A stretch of 64,000 bases of DNA, from NCBI RefSeq assembly GCF_037975245.1, contig NC_092582.1:1717001-1781000 (forward strand), written 5' to 3'. This document shows positions 29,368 through 53,005 of the stretch, one piece after another. How positions within the stretch are numbered: the stretch's first letter is position 1; the number at the start of each line of letters is the position of its first letter. Origin of the DNA: Apostichopus japonicus (lineage: Eukaryota > Echinodermata > Holothuroidea > Aspidochirotida > Stichopodidae). The notes under the pieces are model-generated. The model saw only the letters and a program-made list of their open reading frames with translations. It did not search any database and was not told where the DNA came from. The translations under genes and the position numbers were made by a program.

Positions 29368-31012
29368 TCATTGGTAATACAGTTCCAGGTTCATCCCATC
29401 TTTAATTTCATCTGCAGTAAAATCAAATTAAGGAGCACAGGATATTACAAGGAATCATCAAACTAGTAGCATTCTCTCCAACAATCCCATTGCAATGCAG
29501 AGATCTAGTTAGATCACAAATATAAGAAACATATTCATCTTTGATTTATGGTGTTCTTAACTTTCAGTTGTTTACAAGATTTTTGCCTCGATCATTCGTA
29601 AGTTAATATTGAAATGCCCTTATAATAATAAATAACGAATAACCAGTGTACCTGTGTCCCAAACACCCCCCCCCCCACCTTCAAGTATAAAGTTATCAGG
29701 ATTTCCTCCAAAACATACAACAAACTACAGATAATGGTCACCCATGATCCAATTTCAACAGGCATTCTACAAAGTTATCTACACTGAAATATTGAATTGC
29801 CTTTACTTCTGAATATCTGTGAAAGCATCTGTTAAAGAGTCAAATAATCAGACCATCCTGTAATGTACAAAGGATACAATCCCCAACGGTGATAGTGTCT
29901 TTGAAGATGGTGTACCACTTCTTTAAGACGATTCTGTCTGGTTTTGTTCCTGTCTGTGCTGCAATCAACTTCTTTAAATCACCAATAGTGTCTTCGGGTC
30001 TGTGTAAACAAACTGGTTAAGGAAGTCATATCTATGAATGTTTGAACCACAAAAAGGCAAACATTGTACATGAAACCAGCCCGTTGGGTCTAATAAAAGT
30101 AAATAAATTAGCTTGACTTGTACGAACTACTTATTGACTTATTTACATTAGCTAGCTGTCCACTGTTATGTAATAACTATAATAATCAGCAGTTAATTTT
30201 ACGATGCTAAAGCGACTATAAATGTGGGAGAAACCCACAAGGGCTTATGGATTACACCGTACATGTCAGGTGGCTTCCTATTCAATATTTTAACCCAAAT
30301 TTGAAATCTTTTCAAGTTAGAAAGTCATTTCAGATGGGAAAACAGTAGATTGCTCTTGGATGCAAACCCACCTTACTATGAACCTGCCAGGAATCGAACC
30401 CTGAACCTCCCGATAGTCAAAGCCTTATTGTTTCAATGCCACCCCACCCCTTCATCCACTTGGCTACAGCATCTGTGTAAGAAGACTATAGATGTATCAT
30501 ACTGGTGCAATCAATTGGTCTTTAGCCTAATTGCTTGATGATTATCTTGGGCTTTAGGTGTTAATCATCTGAACTCTACTAAAGAACTGTAAAATTCTAG
30601 CAATCATACATCAGACAAGATCCGAAGAGGTTTCAAGAAGTGAAATCACCAAAGTACATTGCATTTCAATCTTTACTAATTTTCTAATGACAGTCACCCA
30701 CATGTGCTAAATATATCATGATCAGCAAATAGAGAAAATCCTCTTACTTTTTTCAAATTACAACATCTTTGTATACAAATGTAACAGATCTACTGTATTA
30801 CTTTTGCAGAGCTTGGAACAATCATGTATAACATGGAAGTGATTCCAATAATTTATGCCTTTATCATGTTAACACATTCATTCACTCCTTCACACAGTAG
30901 GTATAATATAGTGTTGTACTTATACTGTAAGAAACCAGATGTAACCTAAAGGATACTCGCACTTCACTCGAACCTTCTTCCCGAGCCTATCATTGCAGGT
31001 AATTTCAATCAT
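29368..31012 (-). CDS. UBL5: Ubiquitin-like protein 5 (UBL5/Hub1), three coding exons
   Basis: Minus-strand exons 31012-30957, 29999-29878 and 29411-29368 total 222 nt and encode exactly 73 aa, the usual family length. The protein begins [19 protein letters not shown], continues with [16 protein letters not shown] and [12 protein letters not shown], and ends [14 protein letters not shown]. Like all Hub1 proteins it ends in a Tyr-Tyr motif, not the diglycine of conjugated ubiquitins. Known family role: it binds spliceosome components without covalent conjugation, modulates 5' splice-site use, and takes part in the mitochondrial unfolded protein response in nematodes. An acceptor-like site (CTCCGCAG) 23 nt before the ATG points to at least one 5' UTR exon starting at 31035. 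No canonical polyadenylation signal was found just after the stop. Convergent with endophilin-B, stops 5.4 kb apart. Confidence 0.97.
30172..30478 (-). mobile_element. tRNA-derived SINE, family 1, copy 1
   Basis: On the minus strand the head has A box TAGCCAAGTGG (30466-30456) and B box GGTTCGATTCC (30400-30390). A body follows with CATCCAAGAGCAATCTAC and GGAAGCCACC, and the tail ends AACTGCTGATTATTAT. The body aligns along its length with 43787-44085. The acceptor arms do not pair, so this is not a functional tRNA gene. Confidence 0.8.
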
Positions 31013-52442: not shown

Positions 52443-52605
52443 ATCGTAGAATCACTGTGGTCGAGTGGTACGGAATTTGGTCTTTGACACAAGATCCGGG
52501 GGTTCGATTCTTACCTTCGCCTGATGAGTCCCAAAAGGACGAAACCGGTCGTGAAGTGGGATTTTTTTCTGGTGTGTTATTCTTTATTTATTTACTATAT
52601 ATCTC
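52443..52605 (+). mobile_element. tRNA-derived SINE with hammerhead ribozyme, copy A
   Basis: The element starts near TAGAATCACTGTGG. Pol III A box TGGTCGAGTGG is at 52458-52468 and B box GGTTCGATTCT at 52501-52511, together a tRNA-like head. The body carries a hammerhead core: stem I strand CTTCGC (52515-52520), CTGATGA (52521-52527), stem II GTCC/GGAC with loop CAAAA (52528-52540), GAAA (52541-52544), palindromic stem III ACCGGT, cleavage triplet GTC ending at 52550, and stem I return strand GTGAAG (52551-52556). The tail is T-rich and runs into TATTTACTATATAT. No flanking target duplication was found. Confidence 0.85.
52515..52556 (+). ncRNA. Type I hammerhead ribozyme, copy A
   Basis: All conserved core positions are present: CUGAUGA, GAAA and a GUC cleavage triplet. 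Stem I has six pairs including one G-U. Stem II has four pairs closed by CAAAA. Stem III is only the self-complementary ACCGGU with no loop, so a single molecule would be unstable and a dimer is the likely active form. The strand begins and ends in stem I, making it type I. The CTGATGAGTCCCAAA..GGACGAAAC core resembles hammerheads of schistosome SINE-like elements and metazoan Penelope-like elements. Confidence 0.85.
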
Positions 52606-52790
52606 TCATAACACTTGCTACACATTCATTTCTTATTTACGGCTTGCCTTGCCTTTAAAGAGTGGTTATTCTGTGTAAATTGTGAGATTCAAAGCACCAG
52701 GGGTGCACTCTGTGCAATCATAACACTTGGGTAATACGCCCTCAATAACAGTTATACAATGCCAATATATACGCATTTACACACCAGCAT

Positions 52791-52960
52791 AGAATCACTG
52801 TGGTCCAGTGGTACGGAATTTGGTCTGTGACACAAGATCCGGGGTTCGATTCCTACCTTCGCCTGATGAGTCCCAAAAGGACGAAACCGGTCGTGAGATG
52901 GAATTTTTCTGGTGTTATTCTTTACTTATTTACTATATATATATGTATATATATACATAT
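52791..52960 (+). mobile_element. tRNA-derived SINE with hammerhead ribozyme, copy B
   Basis: This is a second copy of the same element, 343 bp downstream in the same orientation. A box TGGTCCAGTGG is at 52801-52811 and a perfect B box GGTTCGATTCC at 52843-52853. The hammerhead core is identical: CTGATGA at 52863-52869, stem II 52870-52882, GAAA 52883-52886, cleavage site after 52892. The stem I return strand is GTGAGA instead of GTGAAG, which weakens the outer two pairs with CTTCGC. The tail passes into an AT-rich microsatellite. Confidence 0.85.
52857..52898 (+). ncRNA. Type I hammerhead ribozyme, copy B
   Basis: The catalytic core, stem II and minimal stem III are the same as in copy A. 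The predicted cleavage site is after C at 52892. Stem I has four solid pairs, then one U-G and one C-A mismatch, so this copy may be slower. Confidence 0.8.
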
Positions 52961-53005
52961 ATATATGTTTATATTTATACATATATATGTCTATATACAT
53001 AATAG
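52930..53005 (+). repeat. AT-rich microsatellite at the tail of SINE copy B
   Basis: TATATATG/TATACATA repeats that begin where the SINE tail ends; copy A has only a short TATATAT there. Confidence 0.8.

What the first reader, a model, noticed from the sequence alone, without database searches (positions are those of the whole stretch)
52443..52960. Two tRNA-headed SINEs carrying complete hammerhead ribozymes
Each copy has pol III A and B boxes followed at once by CTTCGC-CTGATGA-GTCC-CAAAA-GGAC-GAAA-CCGGTC-GTGA. Every conserved hammerhead position and the stem I and II pairings are present, and core and stem II are identical in both copies while flanking bases differ. Hammerheads are known in schistosome SINE-like elements and in metazoan Penelope-like and retrozyme elements. 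A tRNA-derived SINE with the ribozyme built into its body in this type of animal seems little or not described. Stem III is the bare palindrome ACCGGT, which implies dimeric catalysis, as in other minimal type I hammerheads.
Basis: partly seen in the sequence, partly recalled or inferred. Interest (0 to 1): 0.88.

Follow-up and report, generated by a model that had tools for sequence, protein, structure and literature searches.

The report
Echinoderm hammerhead retrozyme with Pol III boxes
A short jumping gene in what looks like an echinoderm (the phylum of starfish and sea cucumbers) carries a self-cutting RNA partly built from its own promoter-like box, and the scars of its insertions suggest that it borrows the copying enzyme of another jumping-gene family, the Penelope-like elements.

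Summary
The hammerheads are real. Copy 1 passes Rfam Hammerhead_1. Both copies match Hammerhead_HH9 at E 4e-10 and 1.5e-6, below its curated cut-off. The 30-nt core occurs 576 times in the genome at up to 3 mismatches, against 0 for the reversed pattern.

They are not two SINEs but one 494-bp insertion: 1.3 units of a ~341-bp head-to-tail repeat plus a tail, ending in TA-rich DNA. The genome is probably an echinoderm's.

Pol III A and B boxes precede each ribozyme, but no tRNA model matches, 5' ends do not cluster at a Pol III start, and a T-run lies between promoter and most 3' ends. 'tRNA-headed SINE' is only partly right. The B box's 3' half can pair as outer helix I.

3' ends cluster ~50 and ~80-89 nt past the ribozyme cut, often at TA repeats, with head-to-head inversions in 29 of 100 loci. 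This resembles the cDNA start sites of a purified Penelope-like protein.

Best reading: a non-LTR retrozyme copied by Penelope-like machinery, a new variant of a known kind; schistosome Sm-alpha is the nearest precedent. RNA cutting, circles and the helper enzyme are not shown.

The parts
52447..52940 (+). One insertion of the element: 5'-truncated unit (U240-342), whole unit (U1-342), 3' tail (U1-52)
   Evidence: Unit mapping: chain of 494 bp with two ribozymes (locus L045); 342-bp spaced direct repeats
52458..52468 (+). Pol III A box, copy 1
   Evidence: Consensus match TRGYNNARNNG (consensus recalled)
52501..52511 (+). Pol III B box, copy 1; its 3' half pairs as the 5' strand of outer helix I
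   Evidence: Consensus match; pairing counted on 112 copies
52515..52556 (+). Type I hammerhead ribozyme, copy 1; predicted cut 52550/52551
   Evidence: Rfam RF00163, 38.8 bits; RF02275, 44.3 bits, below its gathering score
52558..52568 (+). Outer helix I 3' strand running into a T-run of 7, a possible Pol III stop
   Evidence: Sequence; T>=4 in 95 of 114 copies
52551..52892 (+). Whole tandem unit, cut site to cut site
   Evidence: Recurs genome-wide as units of ~333-353 bp; 24 of 107 ribozyme-bearing chains hold 2 or 3 ribozymes
52801..52811 (+). Pol III A box, copy 2
   Evidence: Consensus match
52843..52853 (+). Pol III B box, copy 2
   Evidence: Consensus match
52857..52898 (+). Type I hammerhead ribozyme, copy 2; predicted cut 52892/52893; one unpaired position in inner helix I
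   Evidence: RF02275, 33.2 bits, E 1.5e-6, below gathering; not listed at gathering
52904..52908 (+). T-run of 5 after ribozyme 2
   Evidence: Sequence
52932..53002 (.). TA-rich tract at the 3' end of the insertion, probable target
   Evidence: Sequence; TA runs at the 3' flank in 61 of 107 elements against 17 of 474 random stretches

Best explanation
The feature is one insertion of a non-autonomous, non-coding retroelement of the metazoan non-LTR retrozyme kind: a ~341-nt unit with one type I hammerhead per unit. Proposed cycle: (1) RNA spanning more than one unit is made, helped by the A/B boxes or by read-through. (2) The B box 3' half and the GGAA+U segment fold as outer helix I, so promoter box and ribozyme share bases; ACCGGU pairs between two ribozymes, which cut as a pair. 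(3) The template copied into DNA spans the cut site, so it is an uncut multimer or a religated circle. (4) A Penelope-like reverse transcriptase with GIY-YIG nuclease opens TA-rich DNA and starts cDNA inside the RNA at one of two main places, ~50 or ~80-89 nt past the cut; the other DNA strand often primes on the same RNA, leaving head-to-head inverted pieces. (5) Copying stops at varied points, giving ragged 5' ends and multi-unit lengths. Shown by sequence: anatomy, tandem units, junction sites, TA bias, inversions, modest constraint on the core. Inferred: RNA cutting, dimer catalysis, circles, Pol III use, which enzyme copies it.
For: Ribozyme models match. Core varies less than flanks in 60 copies not selected by ribozyme, 22/720 against 85/1200. 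Helix pairs are standard in 94.7% of cells against 45-54% when slid. Tandem units with 1, 2 or 3 ribozymes in 83, 22 and 2 chains. 3' ends: 44 of 107 at U50-59 and 23 of 107 at U80-89; TA run >=12 beside the 3' end in 61 of 107 against 17 of 474 and 8 of 1066 controls. Head-to-head inverted junctions in 29 of 100 loci, tail-to-tail 0. 12 of 27 such pairs abut within 15 nt on the circular map, 4.7 expected, P 9e-4. For the Penelope-like protein PAc the paper gives a hammerhead cut at ORF +26, cDNA start at +111-118 (85-92 nt past the cut, my arithmetic), an optional 30-40-bp tail between two start sites, AT-rich targets and extension of both strands (PMC11167929 main text). The genome has at least 37 GIY-YIG matches, and the 3 whose 3' ends I read run into (TA)n.
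Against: No RNA data. The three GIY-YIG elements read have no hammerhead by Rfam and share no sequence with the unit above shuffles; the other 34 were not read. PAc showed no difference in start site between strands, started at sites not homologous to the target, inserted equally with dead hammerheads, and no reads ended at its cut site; here the readable double-ended inversions pair a short with a long site and junctions lie at TA-containing sites. Head-to-head inversions also arise by L1-type twin priming (recalled). Covariation is weak and shuffles reach the paired percentage in 93 of 500. Circular folds are mostly not exceptional (z -0.95, -1.37, -4.45, 0.13, -1.77, -0.32). TA targets hide target-site duplications.
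Confidence: 0.57

Rival explanations
1. A classical Pol III-transcribed, tRNA-derived SINE with a hammerhead in its body, inserted by a LINE enzyme; inversions are twin priming.
For: Full A and B boxes at a spacing of 31-32 nt, each varying 3.2% against 9.1% for the stretch between them in 28 units; dispersed, mostly single-ribozyme copies (83 of 107); twin priming is known for LINEs (recalled).
Against: No tRNA model match; no 5' end peak at the Pol III start (6 of 100, 6.1 expected); a T-run between promoter and 3' ends in most copies; only 22 of 39 copies keep both boxes at proper spacing; unit runs ~190 bp upstream of the boxes and repeats head to tail.
Confidence: 0.18
2. The hammerhead is a passenger: an inherited, no longer used remnant of a Penelope-like pseudo-LTR, and the element spreads without RNA cleavage.
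For: Only 40 of 60 copies not selected by ribozyme keep an intact core; in PAc, hammerhead mutants still insert in vitro; sliding test of the core ranks only 50 of 342.
Against: Core better conserved than its surroundings, p 1e-4, and than the helices, p 0.013; many copies identical over 30 nt.
Confidence: 0.15
3. Satellite-like DNA: the tandem units spread by unequal exchange, and single copies are decayed pieces.
For: Exact tandem of 341 bp in places, e.g. three units in L015/L016.
Against: At most 3 ribozymes per chain in 107 chains, 83 with one; copies scattered over many contigs; junctions fixed at the 3' side and ragged at the 5' side point to reverse transcription.
Confidence: 0.05

Closest known systems
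Metazoan non-LTR retrozymes (Cervera and de la Pena 2020, PMC7229834; parts 1-4 of 6 read)
   Same: Non-coding tandem units of 170-400 nt with one type I hammerhead each, GC below 45-50% (here 40.9%), dimers to multimers and scattered copies; palindromic weak helix III needing dimers as in salamanders
   Different: A and B boxes upstream of the ribozyme, one of them part of helix I; mostly single or double ribozyme copies; circles and expression untested; that text has no hit for 'Pol III', 'polymerase III', 'A box', 'target site' or 'SINE'
Sm-alpha and Sj-alpha of schistosomes (passages of PMC2770079, PMC8490949, PMC4918200; original papers not held, recalled)
   Same: SINE-like elements carrying a type I hammerhead; Sm-alpha ~335 bp with a tRNA-Gln link
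   Different: There a recognisable tRNA (2,368 tRNA-Gln-like calls, 2,342 of them classed as SINE); here only the boxes, no tRNA model match; other phylum, no sequence comparison made
Penelope-like elements with minimal hammerheads (PAc paper PMC11167929, main text; passages of PMC7761336)
   Same: Hammerhead without a real helix III; cDNA start sites ~50 and ~85-90 nt past the cut; AT-rich targets; tandem and inverted copies
   Different: No coding region; no identified parent in this genome
Hammerhead_HH9 (RF02275)
   Same: Best covariance match of both window copies, including an internal loop in helix I
   Different: Below gathering score; HH9 is a conserved intronic ribozyme of amniotes (recalled)

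Membership tests
Type I hammerhead ribozyme (RF00163) | Conserved core and helices I and II, open helix I | tested here: met
   38.8 bits, gathering 34, for copy 1; copy 2 only by E-value
Type I hammerhead ribozyme (RF00163) | Self-cleavage | not testable with these tools
   Needs RNA in vitro
Metazoan non-LTR retrozyme | Tandem units of 170-400 bp with a type I hammerhead, no protein | tested here: met
   Units of ~333-353 bp; 24 of 107 chains with 2 or 3 ribozymes
Metazoan non-LTR retrozyme | Low GC | tested here: met
   40.9% in the window unit
Metazoan non-LTR retrozyme | Linear and circular RNA of unit length | not testable with these tools
   No RNA data
Metazoan non-LTR retrozyme | Target-site duplications when present | tested here: inconclusive
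   Many insertions lie in (TA)n, where duplications cannot be told apart; no systematic test made
tRNA-derived SINE | Internal A and B boxes | tested here: met
   kept together in 22 of 39 copies
tRNA-derived SINE | tRNA-related head | tested here: not met
   No ARAGORN or Rfam tRNA match
tRNA-derived SINE | 5' end at the Pol III start, no internal terminator | tested here: not met
   6 of 100 5' ends near the start, 6.1 expected; T>=4 in 95 of 114 copies
Penelope-like element | Reverse transcriptase and GIY-YIG coding region | tested here: not met
   Unit of 342 bp has no room for it; longest ORF in the window 159 aa, elsewhere
Copied by a Penelope-like enzyme (works like) | Two internal cDNA start sites 30-40 nt apart past the hammerhead, AT-rich target | tested here: met
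   44 of 107 ends at U50-59, 23 of 107 at U80-89, TA beside 61 of 107; compared with PMC11167929
Copied by a Penelope-like enzyme (works like) | Sequence shared with a resident autonomous element | tested here: not met
   No similarity above shuffles to the 3 of at least 37 GIY-YIG loci read; the others not read
Sm-alpha-like hammerhead SINE | Recognisable tRNA-Gln part plus hammerhead | tested here: not met

The most novel reading that the evidence does not exclude
Non-LTR retrozymes are parasites of Penelope-like machinery, and the insertion scars here record its mechanism: one multimeric or circular RNA, two internal start sites set at fixed distances past the hammerhead cut, each primed by a different DNA strand (one short, one long end in 10 of 10 readable double-ended inversions). 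In this family a Pol III B box has also become one strand of the ribozyme helix, which ties promoter and catalysis to the same bases.
Probability: 0.33. Interest if true: 0.72.

Novelty: new variant of a known kind. Interest (0 to 1): 0.5.

Why it matters
Which enzyme copies the hammerhead-bearing retrozymes of animals is open; the 2020 paper proposes Penelope-like elements because both carry type I hammerheads, occur in tandem and coexist. This family offers hundreds of insertion scars whose start-site geometry resembles that measured for a purified Penelope-like protein, so the link becomes testable with one protein and one short RNA. A B box that also serves as a ribozyme strand would be a small, clean case of one stretch with two functions. 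Searches of the held library for hammerheads in echinoderms gave nothing on point: (4 papers, listing only), and the top-ranked 20 of 4,381 and 10 of 661; subscription papers and supplements were not seen, and the 2020 paper says 'among others' for further phyla.

Tried and rejected
Two independent SINEs: rejected, the 342-bp tandem and the unit mapping show one insertion. Recognisable tRNA: not found. Autonomous hammerhead Penelope-like element as source: three alternative core patterns gave 4 (control 3), 28 (control 0) and 8 (control 0) genome matches. Of the 17 of 28 whose letters were shown, 8 differ from the family core only in the one base asked for; the others, and the 8, may be mutants or another ribozyme and were not followed. 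By eye none of these 40 places lies within 10 kb of the 37 GIY-YIG matches (a capped list, 150 of 626 candidates scored). Shared 3' sequence with three Penelope-like ends: none above shuffles. A loose hammerhead expression matched once in L113; Rfam does not support it. Exceptional circular fold: in 1 of 6 units only. Fold of the window copy as a linear RNA: the minimum-energy structure was not examined as a hammerhead, z 0.22. Covariation as proof of the helices: weak. The whole-unit conservation test is biased near U1-6 and U337-342 because local alignments trim ends; the 60-copy set is used instead. Sampling: 112 of 114 distinct ribozyme copies entered alignment A1 (two references left out by oversight); 52 of the 112 came from loci picked by an exact core, so the fair counts use the other 60. 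The 100 loci are what is left of 108 after dropping overlaps; they are best-first or contig-first, not random; of 136 mapped chains 29 without a ribozyme were set aside. One search used 27 of the 29 junctions (L087 and L038 left out as duplicates of L086 and L032); its coordinates were copied by hand. The short/long pairing was noticed after the fact, and one end (L085) may instead be a small deletion.

Full report
WHAT IS THERE. The window lies at C22:1717001-1781000 of a 671.6-Mb, 35-contig assembly. Its 16,099-bp contig C35 holds a COX1 that reads as a normal protein under the echinoderm/flatworm mitochondrial code; from recall of COX1 sequences this is an echinoderm, perhaps a sea cucumber. 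At 52447-52940 there is one insertion made of a 5'-truncated unit, a whole 342-bp unit and a tail. I number the unit U1-U342, U n being window base 52550+n, so that U1 is the first base after the predicted ribozyme cut.

RIBOZYME. Rfam Hammerhead_1 passes for copy 1 (38.8 bits). With E-value reporting both copies match Hammerhead_HH9, a model with an internal loop in helix I, at E 4e-10 and 1.5e-6, both below that family's gathering score. Helix I can have an inner part, CUUCGC/GUGAAG, a small internal loop, and an outer part, GAUUCC/GGAAUU in most copies. GAUUCC is the 3' half of the B box, and the last U's are the start of the T-run. On 112 aligned copies (105 distinct rows) the 16 pairs are standard in 94.7% of cells, against 45-54% when the 3' partners are slid by 1-3 columns; the outer helix alone is 93.0% paired. 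Covariation is weak: three rows carry U-A for C-G in the outer helix and two in the inner one, 5 both-side cells in all, reached by 10 of 500 shuffles; the paired percentage is reached by 93 of 500. Helix III is ACCGGU, a palindrome too short to close a hairpin, so cutting by pairs of ribozymes is expected, as published for newt and Penelope-like minimal hammerheads (passages of PMC7761336; part of PMC7229834).

CONSTRAINT. In the 60 aligned copies from loci not selected by ribozyme, 12 core positions vary in 22 of 720 cells, 32 helix positions in 103 of 1920 and 20 positions just outside the ribozyme in 85 of 1200; Fisher p is 1.3e-4 for core against outside and 0.013 for core against helices. 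40 of those 60 have an intact core. Of 29 distinct copies found by their head, 23 run through the ribozyme. In 28 whole units the core varies 2.4% against 5.4% elsewhere, but slid over the unit this is only rank 50 of 342 placements, so this second test is suggestive at best. In the same set A and B boxes vary 3.2% each and the stretch between them 9.1%.

PROMOTER AND THE SINE LABEL. A and B boxes fit their consensus (recalled) at a spacing of 31-32 nt. Such pairs with a strict B box occur at 52458, 52801 and 30466(-) in the window and in none of 60 random Markov sequences of 64 kb; with a loose B box the random mean is 0.33. But ARAGORN and Rfam find no tRNA. Of 39 copies picked by ribozyme that reach the head, 29 keep the A box, 29 the B box and 22 both at proper spacing. 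5' ends of 100 de-duplicated elements are spread over the unit, 6 of them in U228-248 where 6.1 are expected; the one local excess that I tested is U165-180, 11 against 4.7. A run of 4 or more T follows the ribozyme in 95 of 114 copies, and 85 of 107 elements end at U30-99, beyond it. So a Pol III transcript that stops there, about 120 nt, cannot be the template that is copied: either Pol III reads through or another polymerase makes it.

JUNCTIONS. I mapped the unit onto 100 non-overlapping loci. 136 chains were found, 107 with a ribozyme: 83 with one, 22 with two, 2 with three. Of the 107, 3' ends fall at U50-59 in 44 and at U80-89 in 23; 12 stop in the U340-349 bin, where the query ends and at least some copies go on (L001, L050, L063). 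Within 60 bp of the 3' end a TA run of 12 or more is present in 61 of 107, against 17 of 474 random stretches of the same loci and 8 of 1066 tiles of the window; on the 5' side it is 27 of 107. The element has TATATA near U45-50, so the exact base of the first junction is uncertain. 29 of 100 loci have a head-to-head inverted junction, none a tail-to-tail one. In 12 of 27 pairs the two pieces abut within 15 nt on the circular map, 4.7 expected (P 9e-4), as if two primers had used one RNA; L085 and L089 cross the unit boundary. Both outer ends are 3' ends in 11 of 29; in the 10 of these with both ends inside U38-99 one end is short (U50-60) and the other long (U78-89). This was noticed after the fact and one end (L085) may be a deletion. 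For the 85 elements that hold the ribozyme and end at U30-99, the copied RNA was not cut at that site: an uncut multimer or a religated circle.

ENZYME. The geometry resembles that of PAc, the Penelope-like protein studied in vitro: hammerhead cut 26 bp past the start codon, main cDNA start at +111-118, an optional 30-40-bp tail between two start sites, AT-rich targets, both strands extended (PMC11167929, main text). The same paper reports no difference in start site between strands, starts not homologous to the target, insertion by dead-hammerhead RNA, and no reads that end at the cut site; these speak against parts of my reading. This genome has at least 37 GIY-YIG matches. I could read the 3' ends of three: all run into (TA)n, the two related ones differ by a ~31-nt extension before it, none has a hammerhead by Rfam, and none shares sequence with the element above shuffles. 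Patterns for other hammerheads gave 4, 28 and 8 places. The helper is therefore inferred from scars, not identified. Head-to-head inversions alone would also fit L1-type twin priming (recalled).

KNOWN OR NEW. Non-LTR retrozymes of animals are described (PMC7229834, parts 1-4 of 6 read), with the proposal that Penelope-like elements mobilise them; a find in that text gives no hit for Pol III or SINE. SINE-like hammerhead elements with a tRNA-Gln link are described in schistosomes (passages). Thus 'SINE with a hammerhead' is not new. As far as the searches show (listings, most of the papers not opened), an echinoderm family, a B box used as a ribozyme strand, and junction evidence for Penelope-like copying of a retrozyme were not met.

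Noticed in passing
window 30180-30510, minus strand: A second, ribozyme-free SINE-like repeat with full A and B boxes; relatives at 78-83% identity in loci L066, L091, L015/L016 and L051.
   Followed up: partly
L057:442-518, plus strand: U2 snRNA match above the curated cut-off (50.4 bits, cut-off 46) but only 77 nt for a 192-position model: probably a truncated copy.
   Followed up: no
G000:C29, 14745-16086 and 30842-31219: A 31,219-bp contig carries parts of mitochondrial COX1 twice, 16.1 kb apart, beside a separate 16,099-bp mitochondrial contig: probably an assembly dimer.
   Followed up: no
3' or 5' flanks in L018, L043, L048, L076, L095: Several insertions abut copies of another repeat that contains a stretch like AATTGAAATCGTAGTGAGTTGG.
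   Followed up: no
L112 and L114: Two copies of one GIY-YIG Penelope-like family end at (TA)n with and without a ~31-nt extension, the same optional tail as published for Penelope and PAc.
   Followed up: partly
L010, L078/L079, L101 (5' end U296): Several copies start at U296, the 5' strand of outer helix I, perhaps a copying stop at the ribozyme fold.
   Followed up: no
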